A program made the translations under genes and the position numbers. From assembly GCF_029581195.1 (NCBI RefSeq), contig NZ_CP120737.1:6735001-6799000 (forward strand): 64,000 nucleotides of DNA, written 5' to 3'. Shown here piece after piece: positions 16,828 through 26,049 of this stretch. This stretch comes from Solwaraspora sp. WMMD791 (lineage in GTDB: Bacteria > Actinomycetota > Actinomycetes > Mycobacteriales > Micromonosporaceae). The notes under the pieces are model-generated. The model was not told the origin of the DNA. It worked only from the letters and a program-made list of their open reading frames with translations, and searched no databases. Each line of letters begins with the position of its first letter. The stretch's first letter is position 1.

Positions 16828-17631
16828 ATGTTCAGTTCCCTACGGAGCTGGCGGTTGCCGCGTCTGGCGTTGGCGATCGCCGTACTGCTCGGGGTGAGCG
16901 CCACGGCGGCGGTGGCTGCTGGCCCGCACGGCCCCAAGCCGACCGTCGTGCTCGTGCACGGCGCGTTCGCCGACGCGTCCGGCTGGACCGACGTGACCCG
17001 TAACCTGCTGCGCAAGGGCTACCCGGTGATCGCCCCGGCCAACCCACTCCGCGGCGTCGACTCCGACGCCGCGTACCTGCGCAGTGTGCTGGCCACCATC
17101 GACGGCCCGATCGTGCTGGTCGGCCATTCGTACGGCGGTTTCGTCATGACCACCGCCGCGACCGGCGACCCGGACGTCAAAGCACTGGTCTACGTCGCGG
17201 CGTTCGCCCCGGACGCGGGCGACACCGTCGGCGGCCTGGCCAGCCAGTTCCCTGGCAGCCGGCTCGACCCGACCGCCCTCGACATCCGCCCCTACCCGGG
17301 CGGCAACGACGGTTACATCAAGACCTCGGTGTTCCGCTCGGTGTTCGCCGCCGACGTGCCGGCCGGCACCGCTGCGGTCATGGCCGCCACCCAGCGTCCG
17401 GCCGAACTCGCCACCCTTGGCCAGCCCGCCGGCGAACCCGCCTGGGCGACCATTCCGACATGGACGCTGGTCGCCACCGACGACCAGGTGATCCCGGCTG
17501 CCGCCCAACGGTTCATGGCACAGCGGGCGGGCGCCCGAGTCACCGAGGTCAAGGCCTCGCACGCCGTCATGGTCGCCAAGCCCGGCCCGACCACCGACGT
17601 CATCCTCGCCGCCATCAAGGGAGTGTCCTGA
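16828..17631 (+). CDS. Exported alpha/beta hydrolase
   Basis: A 267-residue alpha/beta hydrolase with a Sec-type signal peptide (residues 1-31, [19 protein letters not shown]), so it acts outside the membrane. Catalytic features are [10 protein letters not shown] (oxyanion region), the nucleophile elbow GHSYGG (Ser101), an Asp in TDDQVIP and a His in KASHAVM. The family (RsbQ/EstA-like, AB hydrolase 6) includes esterases and lactonases; the substrate is unknown. First gene of a four-gene operon; its stop overlaps the next ATG. A short inverted repeat with a T6 loop at about 16768-16790 sits in the leader. Confidence 0.9.
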
Positions 17632-18485: not shown

Positions 18486-19280
18486 ATGGCACCCGACACC
18501 ATCGTGCTGATCCACGGATTCTGGGTCACCCCGCGCAGCTGGGAACACTGGATCAGCCACTACGAGGCCAAGGGCTTCCGGGTCCTGGCACCCGCCTACC
18601 CTGGGTACGAGGTAGAGGTGGAGGCGCTCAACGCCGACCCGACCCCGATCCTGCAGTCCACCGTGCCGCAGATCATCAGCCACTACGAGGCGATCATCGG
18701 CGAGCTGGAGAACCCGCCGATCATCATCGGCCACTCGGCCGGCGGCGCGTTCACCCAGATCCTGCTCGACCACGGCTTCGGCGCGGCGGGGGTGGCGATG
18801 AACTCCGCTCCGACCGAGGGCGTCCGGGTGGTGCCGTTGTCGCAGGTGAAGTCGACGTTCCCGGTGCTGAAGAGCCCGGCGAACCGGCACAAGGCGGTGC
18901 CGTTGACGTTCGAGCAGTGGCAGTACGCCTTCACCAACACGTTCACCGAGGAGGAAGGCCGGGCACTGTGGCAGCGGTACGCCATCCCGGCCAGCGGCGG
19001 CATCCTGTGGGGCAGCGTGCTGGCGAACTTCCAGCCGGGCCACCAGGACATCTGGGTCGACTACCACAACGACGACCGGGCGCCGCTGCTGTTCGTCTCC
19101 GGCAGTGAGGACCACATCATGCCGCCGACGATCCAGGCGTCCAACGCCAAGCACTACAAGTCGAACACCATCACCGATCGGATCGAGTACGAGGGATACG
19201 CCCATCTGCTGCCGGCCCAGAAGGGCTGGGAGGCCATCGCCGACGAAGTCCTCGACTGGGCGCTGCGGCACGCGCGGTGA
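18486..19280 (+). CDS. Alpha/beta hydrolase
   Basis: The third hydrolase of the operon (264 residues), divergent from the other two. LIHGFWVTPRSWEHW gives the oxyanion loop, IGHSAGGAFT the nucleophile elbow (Ser84), SGSEDHIMPP the acid residue and YEGYAHLL the histidine. No signal peptide. GAGAGGA precedes the ATG by six bases, and the stop overlaps the GTG of the following metallo-hydrolase gene. The substrate is not predictable. Three non-redundant alpha/beta hydrolases in one operon suggests stepwise breakdown or detoxification of an ester or lactone. Confidence 0.9.
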   Translation: MAPDTIVLIHGFWVTPRSWEHWISHYEAKGFRVLAPAYPGYEVEVEALNADPTPILQSTVPQIISHYEAIIGELENPPIIIGHSAGGAFTQILLDHGFGAAGVAMNSAPTEGVRVVPLSQVKSTFPVLKSPANRHKAVPLTFEQWQYAFTNTFTEEEGRALWQRYAIPASGGILWGSVLANFQPGHQDIWVDYHNDDRAPLLFVSGSEDHIMPPTIQASNAKHYKSNTITDRIEYEGYAHLLPAQKGWEAIADEVLDWALRHAR

Positions 19281-20086
19281 GCGACGTCCGGATCACCCAC
19301 ATCGGCGGTCCCACCGCGTTGATCGAGGTGGCAGGCTGGCGGATCCTGACCGATCCGACGTTCGACGGCCCCGGCCGGACATACCGGTTCGGCTGGGGCA
19401 CGGCGTCACGCAAACTGGCCGGTCCGGCGGTGCCGCCGGACACCCTGGGCCACATCGACGTGGTCCTGTTGACCCACGACCACCACGCCGACAACCTCGA
19501 CGACGCCGGCCGGGCGCTGCTGCCGTCGGCCGACCGGATTGTCACCACGATGGCCGGCAGCCGCCGCCTCGGGGCCGCCGCCCTCGGCTCCGCGTCGATT
19601 GTCGGGCTCGCGCCGTGGGGTGGCACCGAGTTGACCGCGCCGGGCCGTCCGACGGTCGAGGTGACCGCGACTCCGTGTCGGCACGGGCCGCCGCTGAGCC
19701 GCCCGGTCTCGGGTGAGGTGACCGGGTTCGCGCTGCGCTGGCCAGGTCAGCGGTACGGCGTACTGTGGATCACCGGTGACACGGTCCTCTACCCCGGGGT
19801 ACGGCAGGTGGCGCAGCGGTTCACCGTGGGCACGATGGTGCTGCATCTGGGGGCGGTGCGGTTCGGTCTGACCGGTCCGCTGCGGTACACGATGACAGCC
19901 GCCGATGGTGTGGAGCTGTGCACCCTGGTCGAGGCGCGGACGGTGGTGCCGGTGCACTACGAGGGCTGGGGCCACTTCACCGAGGGCCGCGCGGCGGTCG
20001 AGGCCGCGTTCACCGATGCCCCGGAGCCGGTACGGCGCAGCCTGCACTGGCTGACACCCGGCACGGCCACGTCTCTGCCGGTCTGA
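19277..20086 (+). CDS. Metallo-beta-lactamase-fold (UlaG-like) hydrolase
   Basis: A 269-residue MBL-fold protein. Metal-binding residues are THDHHADN (66-73), CRHGPP, the bridging Asp in ITGDTVL and the His in VPVHYEGW. The early GGPTALIEVAGWRILTDPTF is the entry seen in UlaG-like/L-ascorbate-lactonase and phosphodiesterase relatives. It starts with GTG overlapping the third hydrolase stop, so it closes the operon. A 14-bp stem hairpin follows. A lactonase role would fit the preceding esterases, but this is inference. Confidence 0.9.
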   Translation: MSDVRITHIGGPTALIEVAGWRILTDPTFDGPGRTYRFGWGTASRKLAGPAVPPDTLGHIDVVLLTHDHHADNLDDAGRALLPSADRIVTTMAGSRRLGAAALGSASIVGLAPWGGTELTAPGRPTVEVTATPCRHGPPLSRPVSGEVTGFALRWPGQRYGVLWITGDTVLYPGVRQVAQRFTVGTMVLHLGAVRFGLTGPLRYTMTAADGVELCTLVEARTVVPVHYEGWGHFTEGRAAVEAAFTDAPEPVRRSLHWLTPGTATSLPV

Positions 20087-21543: not shown

Positions 21544-21833
21544 CGTCAGGTGTGTCCTCTCTGATGCCCGGACAGGCGCTCCGCCGAGGCCGGCTGCCAC
21601 GCGCTGGGGTACGAGCGTCGCTTCATCTGCCCGGCTGGGGTGCGGGAGTGAGGTCGAGCTCGCGCGTCGGAGCCGTCTCGGACTGGAGGAGACAGGGATG
21701 GGGCTTGCCGCGTCACGCGGGCCTTCGGCCACCATCGATGAACGGGTCGCTGCCCGTGGATGAGCCGAACGCCATCGCGCCACACCACCGTGCCCGTTTT
21801 TGGGCAGAGTGGTGCCAAAGGCGGGGTCGCGGC
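21544..21833 (-). other. 290-base spacer between peptide gene and dioxygenase gene
   Basis: Apart from the hairpin at 21783-21814 I see no convincing gene. A 20-codon frame (21775-21713) begins ATG and encodes MAFGSSTGSDPFIDGG..., but it has no clear ribosome site. Confidence 0.5.
21783..21814 (-). terminator. Hairpin between peptide gene and dioxygenase gene
   Basis: CACCAC and GTGGTG outer arms, a two-base internal mismatch, and TGCCC/GGGCA inner arms around a six-base loop, 20 bases past the peptide stop. It could end most transcripts after the peptide gene and let some read into the dioxygenase, giving more peptide than enzyme. Confidence 0.55.
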
Positions 21834-21962
21834 TTAGAAGGGTACGAGGGCCTTGCCGGCACCGGTGCCGGGGCGGATCGCGGGGAACTCCGGGCCCTTC
21901 CAGTGTCCGATCGGCGCACGGGTGATGGCTGGTACGGCCGCGACGGGCTTCTCCCAGCTCAT
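21834..21962 (-). CDS. 42-residue Pro-rich peptide gene, possible precursor peptide
   Basis: Not a recognised family. Support for a real gene is unusually good: a TTGACA-N17-TAGCTT promoter upstream, a ~38-base leader, GGGAG five bases before ATG 21962, and a TAA stop followed by a hairpin. The peptide starts MSWEKPVAAVPAITRAP and ends AGKALVPF. It has seven prolines, two tryptophans, three glycines in the last third and no cysteine; hydrophobicity is low, so it is no signal peptide or membrane helix. It heads the dioxygenase gene. It may be a ribosomally made substrate, a small partner protein, or a regulatory leader; I cannot decide. Confidence 0.6.
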   Translation of the reverse strand: MSWEKPVAAVPAITRAPIGHWKGPEFPAIRPGTGAGKALVPF

Positions 21963-22005
21963 GTCCACTCCCGGGTCGACGGATTCACGGGGCAATCTGT
22001 TGGCG

Positions 22006-22034
22006 AAGCTAGCCGCCGCTGTACGTCTTGTCAA
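22006..22034 (-). promoter_or_regulatory. Promoter of the peptide/dioxygenase unit
   Basis: On the minus strand TTGACA (22034-22029), a 17-base spacer and TAGCTT (22011-22006) match the actinomycete housekeeping consensus. Transcription would start near 22000. Confidence 0.75.
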
Positions 22035-22130
22035 CAGGGATGGCGTATCGTCATGTGACCCGCGTGTTAACTGATCACGGTGGTTCTCTCGGCCTTGTGG
22101 ACACCACTACGCGAGATCACATCCCGCATC

Positions 22131-22159
22131 TTGACATGGGATTTGTCGGCCCGTACCTT
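22131..22159 (+). promoter_or_regulatory. Promoter of the ABC transporter operon
   Basis: TTGACA (22131-22136), 17 bases, TACCTT (22154-22159). It diverges from the peptide promoter about 100 bases away. Start near 22166 would give a leader of about 280 bases before the first gene. Confidence 0.7.
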
Positions 22160-22165
22160 CGCTGC

Positions 22166-22444
22166 AAGTCGGTGAGAGCGTCAGGCGCTGCTGGGGTGCA
22201 GCCGGACGCCGGGCCGGACCGAGTGACGGCCCACGCCAGCTCGCGATGCCATGAACCTGCGTGCCAGACCGATCCCGTCGGCAGAGCCGGCGAGACGATT
22301 TTTCCGGGCTCCGGGCGGATCAGTCCGCGACGGTGGGCTCGCGTGAACACCCCATAAACCATCTACTTCCTTCGCTGTACAGCCCTGTCACCGGTTTCGG
22401 TGTCAGGCGACCTCAGCTGCATACACAAGATCAGGAGTGGTGAC
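22166..22444 (+). promoter_or_regulatory. Long structured 5' leader of the ABC operon, candidate attenuator or riboswitch
   Basis: No gene is evident in these ~280 bases, but several hairpins are: GCGTC/GACGC enclosing GCTGC/GCAGC (22178-22209); CGTCGGC/GCCGGCG (22276-22292) followed at 22299 by a run of five T, a terminator-like element inside the leader; GCGGA/TCCGC (22315-22328); and CCTG-CACCG/CGGTG-CAGG (22384-22407) just before the ribosome site. It matches no riboswitch class I know. Confidence 0.5.
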
Positions 22445-23410
22445 ATGAGCACACGACGCTTGGGCGCGGTGGCGGTCTCCGCCGCGCTGCTCCTCGTGAG
22501 CGCCTGCGGTGGCAACGACGACTCCGCCGACGCCGCAGGAGGCGACACCAAGGTTTCCGTCACCAGTTTCGGGTGCGAGATCTGGAACACCTGGGCGATC
22601 GACAAGGGCATCTACGCCAAGCACGGACTGGACGTCGAACTGGTCCGGGCCGGGGGCGGATCGGCGGCGGTGGCCGCCGTTCTCTCCGGGGCAGCCGATT
22701 TCGGTTACGTCAACGGCTACACGGCGATCAACGCCTACAACACCGGTTTCCCGATCCAGATGGTCTCCGGCGCGAACGTCAACGCACTGCCGCCGGCCGA
22801 GCCCGCGCAGGGCGTCTTCGTCGGCAACGACTCACCGATCGACGCTCCCGCCGATCTCGTCGGCAAGAAGATCGCCGTCAACGAGATCAACGGGATCAAC
22901 CAGATCGTCACCTCGAACTGGCTGAAAGCCAACGGGGTGGAGCCGGACAGCGTCAGCTTCGTGGCGTTGCCGTTCGCCGAGCAGATCCCGGCGGTGCTCA
23001 ACGGCCGGGTGGACGCGGCGCAGCTGGGCTACTCGCTGCTGGGCGACAACAACGACACCGTACGGAGCCTGGCCGACCCGTTCGCCAGCATCGACAAGGT
23101 CTACATCGCCACGTACGTCTCCTCGAAGGAATTCGTGGCCGACAGCGACGCGGCCAAGCGCTTCCACGAGGCCCTCACCGAGACCATGGAGCAGCTCGAG
23201 GACCCGGCGAACACCGACGAGTCGTTCCGGCTGCTGTCGGAATGCCAGAAGGTCCCGGCGGAGACCCTGGCCGCCCAGCCACAGAACGCGCTGGAGCCGG
23301 CCGTCGACATGGCCGCCCTGGAGCAGATGGCCCAGCAGATGGTCGACCTCAAGCTGATGCCGGAGACGCCCGACCTCGAGTCCCTCGTCGCCGACTTCGC
23401 CCGGTCCTGA
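22445..23410 (+). CDS. NitT/TauT-family (NMT1-like) ABC transporter substrate-binding lipoprotein
   Basis: A 321-residue lipoprotein anchored outside the membrane: signal with lipobox LLLVSAC (Cys at about 21), then an NMT1/SsuA-like fold beginning VSVTSFGCEIWNTWAIDKGIYAKHG split by KHGLDVELVRAGGGSA, ADFGYVNGYTAINAY and LVGKKIAVNEINGINQ. Relatives bind taurine, alkanesulfonates, nitrate or thiamine-precursor pyrimidine. ATG 22445 has AGGAG nine bases upstream. First gene of a four-gene transporter operon with a dedicated leader; the neighbouring TauD-type enzyme makes a sulfonate-like substrate plausible but not proven. Confidence 0.9.
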   Translation: MSTRRLGAVAVSAALLLVSACGGNDDSADAAGGDTKVSVTSFGCEIWNTWAIDKGIYAKHGLDVELVRAGGGSAAVAAVLSGAADFGYVNGYTAINAYNTGFPIQMVSGANVNALPPAEPAQGVFVGNDSPIDAPADLVGKKIAVNEINGINQIVTSNWLKANGVEPDSVSFVALPFAEQIPAVLNGRVDAAQLGYSLLGDNNDTVRSLADPFASIDKVYIATYVSSKEFVADSDAAKRFHEALTETMEQLEDPANTDESFRLLSECQKVPAETLAAQPQNALEPAVDMAALEQMAQQMVDLKLMPETPDLESLVADFARS

Positions 23411-23456: not shown

Positions 23457-24317
23457 ATGGCGCCTGGCGTCGGTGTGACCCAGACAGTCGAGTCGACGGT
23501 CCGTCCTACGCCGCCCTCCGGCGGGCCGACCACGGCCCGCCGGAGGCGCCCCGTACCCGATTGGGTCATCGGGCTGGCCGGCGCGGCGACGATGCTCGTG
23601 CTGTGGGACCTGGTGGTCCGCAGCGGTGCGGTGTCCCCGGACTCCCTGCCGTACCCCGGCACCACCCTGCTGCGGGTCGGCGAGCTCCTCGTCGACGTCA
23701 CCTTCCTGACGGAGGTGGCGCACACCCTGTGGGCCTGGCTGATCGCCATGGTCGCCGCCAGCGCCGTCGGGATCCCACTGGGCCTGACGCTGGGCTACTT
23801 CTCCGCCCTGAACCGGCCCGCGTCCTCGGTCGTGCACGCCGGCAGGTCGATCCCCTCCTCGGCGTTCCTCCCGATCGCCATCCTGCTGTTCGGGCTGGGC
23901 ACGCAGATGAAGGTCTCGCTGGCGATCTACGCGATCTTCTGGCCGATCCTGCTGAACGCCATGTACGGCGTCCGGGACACCGAACCGCTGATGCTGGCCA
24001 CGGGACGCAGCATGGGCTGGGGACGGCTGCGGCTGCTGCGCCGGGTGGTGCTGCCGTCGGCGGCCCCCGCCATCGCCACCGGCCTGCGGGTCGCCAGCTC
24101 GACGGCGCTGATCGTGGTGCTCTCGGCCGAGCTGCTCGGTGCCACCAGCGGCGTGGGAAACGTGATCACCACATACCAGCAGGCGCAACGCCCGGACTTC
24201 GTCTACGCGGGGATTCTCCTCGTAGGAGTGCTCGGAATGCTGCTCTATTACGGCTTCAACCTGGCCGAACGCCTCATCGTGCCGTGGGGCCAGGCGCAAC
24301 GGGAGGGCGGGAAGTGA
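23457..24317 (+). CDS. ABC transporter permease, NitT/TauT type (SsuC-like) 1
   Basis: An inner-membrane permease of 286 residues with six predicted helices after a ~40-residue cytoplasmic Pro/Thr/Arg-rich tail. The family loop LMLATGRSMGWGRLRLLRRVVLPSAAP (EAA-type coupling loop, split here as GRSMGWGRLRLLRRVVLPS) contacts the ATPase. It shares the SIPSSAFLPIAILLFGLG stretch of SsuC/TauC proteins. 46 bases after the binding protein; its stop overlaps the GTG of the second permease. Confidence 0.92.
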   Translation: MAPGVGVTQTVESTVRPTPPSGGPTTARRRRPVPDWVIGLAGAATMLVLWDLVVRSGAVSPDSLPYPGTTLLRVGELLVDVTFLTEVAHTLWAWLIAMVAASAVGIPLGLTLGYFSALNRPASSVVHAGRSIPSSAFLPIAILLFGLGTQMKVSLAIYAIFWPILLNAMYGVRDTEPLMLATGRSMGWGRLRLLRRVVLPSAAPAIATGLRVASSTALIVVLSAELLGATSGVGNVITTYQQAQRPDFVYAGILLVGVLGMLLYYGFNLAERLIVPWGQAQREGGK

Positions 24318-25159
24318 GCACCAACGACGCGACGCGGCCGAGCCTGGTCGGCTCGGCGCTGGCGGTGGGGCGGGGCGTGCAGTCACTGTGGCTGCTCGCG
24401 CTGCTCCTGGTGGTCTGGGAGATCGCCGCCCGGCTCGCCGGCTCCCTGTTCATCCCGCCGGTGTCGCAGATCTTCGTCGCGTTCGTCGACACCTGGCTCT
24501 CCGCCTCGCCCACCTCGCTGTTCCTCAGTGAACAGTTCCGCACCGACGTGCTGCCCAGCCTGGCGCGACTCGGCCTCGGCTACGGCACGGCCGCCACGGT
24601 CGGCATCTGCGCCGGCATCCTGATCGGCGTGTGGCGACCCGCCGGCGCGTTCTTCAACCCGCTGATCCGGCTCGGCATGTCGGTGCCGGTGACCGCGCTG
24701 CTGCCCATCGCGATCGTGGTCTTCGGCATCACCAGCGGCATGAACGTCTTCCTGATCGCGCTCGGCTGCCTGTGGCCGATCCTCATCAACACCTACGACG
24801 GGGTACGGGGCCTGGACCGCACCGCGGTCACCGCCGCGAAGAGCCTGCGGTTGACCCGGCGTCGCTACTTCCTCCAGGTGCTGCTGCCCGGTGCCAGTCC
24901 GGCGATCTTCGCCGGCCTGCGGATCAGCATCGGCATCGCCCTGGTCCTCATGGTGATCTCCGAGCTCTACGCCGCGACCGCCGGGCTCGGCTTCTACATC
25001 GTCAACCAGCAGCGGCTGTTCCGGTTCCCGGAGCTGTGGTCGGCGATCGTGCTACTGGCGCTGTTGGGGATCCTCTTCAACGCCATCTTCGCCCTGGTCG
25101 AACGCCTGCTGCTCGGCTGGCACCGCAACGTGCGGCCGGACGGCGCGGAACGCCACTGA
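24314..25159 (+). CDS. ABC transporter permease, NitT/TauT type (SsuC-like) 2
   Basis: A second, non-identical permease (281 residues, six helices), with MSVPVTALLPIAIVVFGI and the coupling loop KSLRLTRRRYFLQVLLPGA. GTG 24314 overlaps the previous stop (GTGA). Most TauC/SsuC systems use a homodimer of one permease, so two distinct permeases imply a heterodimeric channel, as in a minority of NMT1-type systems. Confidence 0.92.
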   Translation: MSTNDATRPSLVGSALAVGRGVQSLWLLALLLVVWEIAARLAGSLFIPPVSQIFVAFVDTWLSASPTSLFLSEQFRTDVLPSLARLGLGYGTAATVGICAGILIGVWRPAGAFFNPLIRLGMSVPVTALLPIAIVVFGITSGMNVFLIALGCLWPILINTYDGVRGLDRTAVTAAKSLRLTRRRYFLQVLLPGASPAIFAGLRISIGIALVLMVISELYAATAGLGFYIVNQQRLFRFPELWSAIVLLALLGILFNAIFALVERLLLGWHRNVRPDGAERH

Positions 25160-25203: not shown

Positions 25204-26049
25204 ATGGAACCGGTGACGATCCCGCACCACCAGCAGGACCCGGCCAGCGCGACGCCCGTGCTCGACGTCCGCAAGGCGGGCAAGTCCTACCCCTCCCGCA
25301 AGGGGGAGGTGCTGGCCGTACGCAGCATCGAGTTCGCCGTACACGCCGGCCAGTTCGTCTCGGTCGTCGGCCCCTCCGGCTGCGGCAAGACGACACTCAT
25401 GATGTGCATCGCCGGCCTGCTGCCCATCTCCACCGGGGAGGTCGTCTTCCGGGGAGAGACCATGTCCGGCCCCCGCGACGGCGTCGCGGTCGTCTTCCAG
25501 GACTACAGCCGGTCGCTGTTTCCCTGGCTGACGGTCGAAAAGAACGTCACTCTTCCGCTGCGCGACCGGCGGCTGCCGCGCGCCGAGATCCGCGACCGGG
25601 TGCGGCAGTCGCTGGAGATGGTGGGACTGGCCCACGCCGCCGGCCTGTATCCGTGGCAGCTCTCCGGCGGTATGCAACAGCGGGTGGCGATCGCGCGCGG
25701 GCTCGCCGTACGGCCGGAGATGCTGATCATGGACGAGCCGTTCGCCTCGGTCGACGCCCAGACCCGGGCGAGCCTGGAGGATCTGCTGCTCAAGATCTGG
25801 GCGGAGACGGGGACGACGGTGCTCTTCGTGACCCACGACATCGACGAGGCCGTGTACCTGTCCGACCGGGTGATCGTCCTGTCGCAGGGGCCGTCCACCG
25901 TCGTCGCCGACCTGCCGGTCCCACTCGACCGGCCCCGGGACCAGATCGCGACCAAACAGACGTCGACCTTCGGCGAACTTCGGGAAGAGGTCTACTCGCT
26001 CGTCATGTCCTCCCAACGGCGCACCTCCCTGTCGGCCGAACCGACCTGA
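25204..26049 (+). CDS. ABC transporter ATP-binding protein, NitT/TauT type
   Basis: The 281-residue ATPase that powers uptake. It has Walker A GPSGCGKTT, Q-loop VFQDYSRSLFPW, signature LSGGMQQRVAIARGLA, Walker B MLIMDEPF and the switch His in VTHDIDEA. VFQDYSRSLFPWLTVEKNV is characteristic of SsuB/TauB relatives. ATG 25204 follows AGAGGAGGACC. Last gene of the operon; it ends just before the right copy of the 17-bp repeat. Confidence 0.95.
   Translation: MEPVTIPHHQQDPASATPVLDVRKAGKSYPSRKGEVLAVRSIEFAVHAGQFVSVVGPSGCGKTTLMMCIAGLLPISTGEVVFRGETMSGPRDGVAVVFQDYSRSLFPWLTVEKNVTLPLRDRRLPRAEIRDRVRQSLEMVGLAHAAGLYPWQLSGGMQQRVAIARGLAVRPEMLIMDEPFASVDAQTRASLEDLLLKIWAETGTTVLFVTHDIDEAVYLSDRVIVLSQGPSTVVADLPVPLDRPRDQIATKQTSTFGELREEVYSLVMSSQRRTSLSAEPT

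What the first reader, a model, noticed from the sequence alone, without database searches (positions are those of the whole stretch)
21834..21962. Promoter-driven 42-residue peptide gene upstream of a TauD-type oxygenase
The peptide has a near-consensus promoter, a strong ribosome site and a hairpin after it, then a Fe(II)/2-oxoglutarate dioxygenase gene on the same strand. Pro-rich, Trp-containing, Cys-free. Either a new precursor peptide (hydroxylated by the dioxygenase) or a small partner or leader. Nothing like it is known to me.
Basis: partly seen in the sequence, partly recalled or inferred. Interest (0 to 1): 0.7.

Follow-up and report, generated by a model that had tools for sequence, protein, structure and literature searches.

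The report
Small-protein gene with regulatory RNA tail
A real 42-residue protein gene of Micromonospora-type soil bacteria keeps company with a neighbouring nutrient importer rather than with the oxygenase beside it, and is followed by a conserved folded RNA whose exposed loops match a loop at the start of the importer's message, which suggests one small transcript that both makes a peptide and controls the importer.

Summary
The 42-codon gene is real: full-length relatives (88-100% identical, mostly silent changes) occur in 8 of 354 Micromonosporaceae genomes held, with conserved promoter and ribosome site. The dioxygenase reading is weakened: TauD adjoins the peptide only in the three same-genus genomes and recurs beside related importers without the peptide, although every peptide genome has a TauD homologue somewhere. 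The constant neighbour is a divergent Tau/Ssu-like ABC operon, 8 of 8. New here: a conserved, covarying hairpin (element A, 21592-21674) between peptide and TauD at all eight loci, with no other match better than E=0.02 in 300 family genomes. On the peptide strand it exposes two ACCCCAG motifs, complementary over 8-10 nt (wobbles included) to the exposed UGGGGU loop of a hairpin in the binding-protein mRNA leader (element B). Best reading: a dual-function transcript that encodes a 42-aa protein and carries C-rich antisense loops against the adjacent importer, like SgrS/SgrT or VcdRP. Coding and folding are supported; A's strand (evidence mixed), transcript extent and pairing are inferred.

The parts
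21834..21962 (-). 42-codon small-protein gene
   Evidence: conserved in 8 genomes with purifying selection
22006..22034 (-). promoter TTGACA-17-TAGCTT of the peptide gene
   Evidence: conserved in 8 of 8 loci (spacer 14 in L044); not found by the consensus scan
21968..21972 (-). ribosome-binding site GGGAG
   Evidence: present in 8 of 8 loci
21783..21814 (-). hairpin just after the gene, same-genus loci only; possible terminator without U run
   Evidence: 3 of 8 loci
21592..21674 (-). element A: conserved structured RNA with two exposed ACCCCAG motifs (strand inferred)
21635..21641 (-). ACCCCAG motif 1, apical loop of element A
   Evidence: unpaired probability 0.95-1.0 in 8 loci
21604..21610 (-). 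ACCCCAG motif 2, internal loop of element A
   Evidence: unpaired probability 0.71-1.0 in 8 loci
22187..22202 (+). element B: hairpin GCTGC-TGGGGT-GCAGC in the leader of the binding-protein mRNA
22131..22159 (+). promoter TTGACA-17-TACCTT of the ABC operon
   Evidence: -35 TTGACA in 8 of 8 loci; -10 TACCTT in 6 of 8, TACGTT in L043 and L044
22112..22130 (+). stretch with a conserved partial palindrome before the ABC promoter, operator-like
   Evidence: alignment
22445..23410 (+). substrate-binding protein, NMT1/SsuA-like
   Evidence: with the peptide in 8 of 8 loci
23457..24317 (+). ABC permease 1
24314..25159 (+). ABC permease 2 (GTG start)
25204..26049 (+). ABC ATPase
   Evidence: cut by the contig end in L040
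20461..21543 (-). TauD-family dioxygenase, present at this locus only in the window's genus

Best explanation
The peptide gene is the 5' half of a small dual-function transcript. From the conserved - strand promoter an RNA of about 400-450 nt is made; it is translated into a 42-residue, probably unstructured protein, and its 3' part folds into element A, a long hairpin that presents ACCCCAG twice in loops. These C-rich loops kiss the UGGGGU loop of hairpin B at the 5' end of the divergently transcribed mRNA for the binding protein of a Tau/Ssu-like ABC importer and so turn its expression down (or time it). The 42-aa protein probably acts on the same importer or its pathway. Shown: coding, co-inheritance with the importer, conserved RNA fold, exposure of the motifs in silico, complementarity. 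Inferred: that A lies on the - strand and in the peptide transcript, that A and B pair, the sign of regulation, and the target of the protein.
For: Peptide under purifying selection. Peptide and importer together in 8 of 8 loci (ATPase cut by the contig end in L040); in a 200-genome sample the 5 genomes with an 80%-or-better binding protein are all peptide genomes (with 11 and 79). A same-genus genome (G034) has neither: a deletion runs from inside TauD to inside permease 2. Element A at 8 of 8 loci, otherwise only 6 weak matches (E 0.02-0.45) in 300 genomes. Covariation: 22 pairs, 93.1% of cells paired against 86.8% shuffled and 26-45% slid; 15 cells with changes on both sides against 6.9 shuffled, 0 of 500. 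Conservation stops at A: identity between three lineages 0.53-0.73 in A, 0.21-0.43 beyond it, background 0.37. Both motifs unpaired on the - strand in 8 of 8 loci (0.71-1.0; 15 of 16 at least 0.87), B loop unpaired 0.73-0.99; the 8-locus means exceed 150 of 150 shuffles. For both motifs in all 8 loci the best duplex in a 335-nt stretch of leader and early coding sequence is the B loop, -16.0 to -23.6 kcal/mol. B core 14-mer occurs once in each of 8 peptide genomes and in 0 of 8 others tested. No block conserved across the lineages lies just upstream of A on the + strand, where a + strand promoter would be sought.
Against: Strand of A is not settled. RNAalifold prefers the + strand (-36.1 against -13.6 kcal/mol); with the + strand structure G-U pairs favour + by 52 to 7, with the - strand structure 6 to 6; on alignment A3 the - strand structure has 4 G-U against 7 A-C cells. 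Folding energies are unremarkable (z -0.2 to -2.2 on -, -1.1 to +1.1 on +). In one search two measures do not stand out (pairs with both sides changed: 31 of 500 shuffles reach 7; pair types: 435 of 500). Single-locus exposure controls are weak for L041 (21 of 150) and L044 (6 of 150), and no shuffle control was run for A on the + strand. Shuffled leaders reach the loop-1 duplex energy in 10-22 of 500 trials in the five Micromonospora loci (0-1 in the window's genus). Motifs of A and B are the same sequence on one DNA strand, so a shared protein target fits too. In the window's genus a hairpin (21783-21814) could end the peptide transcript before A. Only 8 loci in two genera, some closely related. 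No transcript data. All 8 peptide genomes have a TauD homologue.
Confidence: 0.4

Rival explanations
1. The 42-aa protein is simply a small partner or modulator of the ABC importer, and A and B are RNA elements that carry the same UGGGGU motif on the + strand and are read by a common RNA-binding factor (or A acts as a decoy); they do not pair with each other.
For: RNAalifold and the + strand G-U count favour A on the + strand; A and B then share the same motif in the same sense.
Against: On the + strand the motif is largely paired in A (0.03-0.91; no shuffle control there); no block conserved across lineages lies upstream of A on the + strand; the known conserved promoter points at A from the - strand.
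Confidence: 0.27
2. One reading: a precursor peptide (RiPP) hydroxylated by a TauD-family enzyme, linked or acting in trans.
For: TauD adjacent in the window's genus; a TauD homologue of 68% or more in 8 of 8 peptide genomes; in Micromonospora 5 of 5 peptide genomes are among the 9 of 160 with a close TauD; C-terminal 34 residues almost invariant.
Against: No TauD found near the peptide in 5 of 8 loci; 4 of 4 same-genus genomes without the peptide still have a TauD homologue of 69% or more, partial in one copy of G034; TauD sits beside related importers without peptide in L078, L095, L096; the enzyme's nearest solved relatives are FrbJ and a 'predicted hydroxylase', not named as peptide modifiers; no other enzyme is conserved at the locus. 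The Micromonospora co-occurrence was not corrected for kinship.
Confidence: 0.09
3. A nascent-chain sensor or leader peptide: translation of the 42 codons, whose C-terminus (VPF, then stop) is nearly invariant, controls what follows on the same transcript.
For: The variable part is the N-terminus, the C-terminus nearly invariant, as in arrest peptides (recalled); a structured element lies 3' of the gene.
Against: No same-strand gene is conserved downstream; A starts about 160-220 nt after the stop; stop codons differ between loci (TAA, TAG, TGA).
Confidence: 0.08
4. The three ACCCCAG sites are DNA sites of a transcription factor, and the hairpin is incidental.
For: Same sequence on the same strand three times; the two sites in A are 31 bp apart in 7 of 8 loci.
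Against: The arms around the sites vary but keep pairing by changes on both sides; two sites lie downstream of a gene, where no conserved promoter was seen.
Confidence: 0.08

Closest known systems
VcdRP of Vibrio cholerae (dual-function RNA; passages of PMC8672173 seen)
   Same: small ORF (29 aa there) followed by a conserved base-pairing stretch with four consecutive cytosines that acts on transport mRNAs; ORF and seed both conserved
   Different: targets are several trans-encoded sugar-transporter mRNAs at translation initiation sites; here the candidate target is the divergent neighbour, near the 5' end of a leader of roughly 280 nt; different phylum; the seed occurs twice, in loops of one long hairpin; no homology claimed
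SgrS/SgrT of enteric bacteria (recalled; mentioned in passages of PMC8672173)
   Same: layout: short ORF (SgrT, about 43 aa, recalled), then a pairing region, both aimed at an importer
   Different: PTS sugar importer and trans target; no sequence relation tested
6C RNA of actinobacteria (passages of PMC9569102 seen; Mai et al. 2019 seen only as a title in its reference list)
   Same: actinobacterial RNA with C-rich loops said to bind mRNAs
   Different: no Rfam match at gathering scores in the window, none to 6C up to E=10 at this locus; A has ACCCCAG, one apical and one internal loop, and a coding ORF upstream
TauABCD/SsuABC-type importers with a TauD dioxygenase
   Same: NMT1/SsuA-like binding protein, BPD permeases, ATPase, TauD-family enzyme
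   Different: all scores I checked lie below NCBIfam's Tau/Ssu cut-offs; substrate unknown; two permeases; the peptide and elements A and B are extra

Membership tests
dual-function regulatory RNA (SgrS/SgrT, VcdRP kind) | a translated small ORF | tested here: met
   coding selection; translation itself not observed
dual-function regulatory RNA (SgrS/SgrT, VcdRP kind) | a conserved accessible pairing region on the same transcript | tested here: inconclusive
   accessible and conserved, but strand and transcript extent not shown
dual-function regulatory RNA (SgrS/SgrT, VcdRP kind) | base pairing with a target mRNA | tested here: inconclusive
   8-10 nt complementarity in 8 of 8 loci; no compensatory change between A and B; function untested
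6C RNA (Rfam) | match to the covariance model | tested here: not met
RiPP precursor modified by TauD | co-localisation with the modifying enzyme across relatives | tested here: not met
   3 of 8 loci, one genus
RiPP precursor modified by TauD | modified mature peptide | not testable with these tools
   needs mass spectrometry
taurine or alkanesulfonate importer (TauA/SsuA equivalog) | score above NCBIfam cut-off | tested here: not met
   SsuA_fam 87.4 bits, cut-off 163.5; taurine_ABC_bnd 30.5, cut-off 304.25
TauD/TfdA dioxygenase superfamily (Pfam PF02668) | score above Pfam cut-off | tested here: met
   95.9 bits, cut-off 27

The most novel reading that the evidence does not exclude
A dual-function RNA of actinobacteria: one transcript encodes a 42-aa protein and carries a two-loop C-rich antisense hairpin that kisses a loop in the leader of the divergently transcribed importer mRNA, so that peptide, antisense RNA and target form one self-contained, co-inherited regulatory cassette.
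Probability: 0.35. Interest if true: 0.75.

Novelty: new variant of a known kind. Interest (0 to 1): 0.58.

Why it matters
It also shows that a gene lying beside a tailoring-type enzyme need not be its substrate: comparing relatives moved the partnership from the oxygenase to the importer.

Tried and rejected
TauD as modifying partner: tested by neighbourhood and distribution; weakened, not fully excluded.

Wider relatives of the peptide: class sample of 394 genomes, viral contigs, plasmids, phages, GTDB r220 species by two short patterns (3 Micromonospora loci). The weak hits that I looked at (L048-L051, L016, L018) show no comparable small ORF and I treat them as chance; the other weak hits (E of 0.005 or more) were not inspected one by one.

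Known RNA family: Rfam at gathering scores over the window (none) and up to E=10 at the locus (one below-cut-off match to a Bacteroidales SRP RNA, over the antisense of the peptide gene; taken as chance).

Fold of the peptide: AlphaFold2 on 5 sequences gave mean pLDDT 57.9, no usable fold. No structure search was made.

Literature: the motif GHWKGPEFP is in 0 of 5.39 million papers. Searches gave listings only; I opened none of those papers, so I do not claim that no actinobacterial dual-function RNA is in print.

Full report
What is there. The ORF at 21834-21962 (-) encodes a 42-residue protein. The window lies in a complete 6.93 Mb genome. Among all 354 genomes held for its family, 8 have a full-length relative with E below 1e-19: 3 of 7 in the window's genus and 5 of 160 in a second genus. 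A ninth match (G310, 19 residues, E=9e-4) I treat as chance. Identity is 88-100%. Residues 9-42 are nearly invariant and the first eight vary. Changes are mostly silent. Promoter and ribosome site are conserved.

The neighbour that counts. In all eight loci the gene stands divergent to a four-gene importer operon: an NMT1/SsuA-like binding protein, two permeases and an ATPase (the ATPase is cut by the contig end in L040). In a 200-genome family sample, 6 genomes matched the binding protein at E of 1e-40 or less; the 5 with 80% or more identity are peptide genomes, the sixth (G064) is a 36% paralogue, and G182 also has a second copy at 35%. TauD adjoins the peptide only in the three same-genus genomes; in the five Micromonospora loci other genes follow. 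In G034 of the window's genus, which lacks the peptide, TauD is cut at residue 84-85 and abuts permease 2 at residue 62, so that a deletion removed the peptide, the binding protein and permease 1 together.

TauD. A TauD homologue of 68% or more is present in 8 of 8 peptide genomes and in 4 of 4 same-genus genomes without the peptide (partial for one copy of G034), and in 0 of 6 chosen Micromonospora genomes without the peptide, one of which has a 37% hit. Over all 160 Micromonospora genomes, 9 have a close homologue, including the 5 peptide genomes. This co-occurrence favours some link and was not corrected for kinship. Yet in 3 of the 10 loci examined (L078, L095, L096) TauD homologues lie beside related ABC importers, with no match to the peptide. 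The simplest reading is that TauD is the enzyme of the importer's pathway, as in TauABCD (recalled).

Element A. Aligning the eight loci showed conserved blocks between peptide and TauD that carry ACCCCAG twice, 31 nt apart (32 in L044). They fold into one long hairpin. On the MAFFT alignment A3, 22 pairs are 93.1% standard (shuffled mean 86.8%, 0 of 500 as high; slid versions 26-45%), with 15 cells changed on both sides (shuffled mean 6.9, 0 of 500). Pairs with such a change (7) are reached by 31 of 500 shuffles and pair types by 435 of 500. The structure was derived from the same alignment, which favours it in the slid comparison. Sequence identity is high in A (0.53-0.73 among three lineages) and falls to background (0.21-0.43 against 0.37) beyond it, where the genomic contexts differ. 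A covariance model built from the + strand alignment finds A at the eight loci, which it matches by construction, and otherwise only six weak matches (E 0.02-0.45) in 300 family genomes (strict filters).

Element B and the match. The binding-protein leader starts, after a conserved TTGACA-17-TACNTT promoter, with a conserved stretch that contains the hairpin GCTGC-TGGGGT-GCAGC. Its 14-nt core occurs once in each of the eight peptide genomes and in none of eight others tested; the reversed control pattern occurs once in two of the 16 genomes. On the peptide strand both ACCCC motifs of A are unpaired (0.71-1.0; 15 of 16 values at least 0.87), and the GGGGT of B is unpaired (0.73-0.99) in all eight loci. 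Shuffles that keep the motif reach the locus value for A in 0, 0, 0, 1, 21, 2, 0 and 6 of 150 and for B in 0, 2, 1, 0, 0, 0, 0 and 1 of 150; no shuffle reaches the eight-locus means. On the + strand the motif in A is mostly paired (0.03-0.91), but no shuffle control was run there and G-rich motifs pair more readily. For both motifs in all eight loci the strongest duplex in a 335-nt stretch of leader and early coding sequence is the B loop, 8-10 pairs with wobbles counted, -16.0 to -23.6 kcal/mol. Shuffled leaders do as well for motif 1 in 0, 1, 0, 17, 14, 10, 17 and 22 of 500.

Which strand. This is the weak point. RNAalifold scores the + strand better, and with its own structure G-U cells favour + by 52 to 7; with the - strand structure the count is 6 to 6, and on A3 4 G-U against 7 A-C. 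Energy z-scores lean to -. A double change in L039 (C-G to U-A) supports the outer-helix register that leaves the motif unpaired, on either strand. The conserved promoter that points at A is the peptide's, and no block conserved across the lineages lies where a + strand promoter would be. I put about 0.65 on the - strand.

Mechanism. I therefore favour a dual-function transcript: a 42-aa protein, then a two-loop C-rich RNA that pairs with the leader of the neighbouring importer mRNA. Passages of PMC8672173 describe VcdRP, in which a 29-aa ORF is followed by four consecutive cytosines that act on sugar-transporter mRNAs; SgrS/SgrT has a similar layout (recalled, and mentioned there). Passages of PMC9569102 describe 6C RNA of actinobacteria with C-rich loops. 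A is no match to a known Rfam family. Pairing between A and B, the sign of control and the protein's target are inferred. In the window's genus a strong hairpin after the ORF might end the transcript early; it is absent in Micromonospora.

Noticed in passing
L075:9588-9591: In G034 of the window's genus TauD (from residue 85) directly abuts permease 2 (from residue 62): a deletion scar of the cassette.
   Followed up: partly
window 22112-22130: Partial palindrome with arms of the ATGCG/CGCAT kind, conserved just before the -35 of the ABC promoter in the eight-locus alignment; operator-like.
   Followed up: no
L078:8743-13349; L095:2711-9306; L096:1715-8312: Related ABC importers beside TauD homologues but without the peptide or elements A and B.
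   Followed up: partly
L076 and L077, downstream of TauD: The unlinked TauD paralogue lies near genes that look, by eye only and with no HMM run, like a P450-reductase fusion, an alcohol dehydrogenase (L077) and an aldehyde dehydrogenase.
   Followed up: no
window 21643-21655 and 21968-21974 (approximate), - strand: CACTCCCG in element A is complementary to CGGGAGTG of the peptide's own ribosome site in the window's genus; not exact in the Micromonospora loci. Seen by eye.
   Followed up: no
L042, 4.9-8.7 kb downstream of the peptide: A 1260-aa open frame that looks like DNA gyrase subunit A with an intein-like insertion (by eye).
   Followed up: no
L044:15996-17724: Homologues of the window's metallo-hydrolase-like protein (19277-20086, 69% identical) and alpha/beta-hydrolase-like protein (16828-17631, 59%) lie 6-8 kb downstream of the peptide in G275; names by eye.
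   Followed up: no
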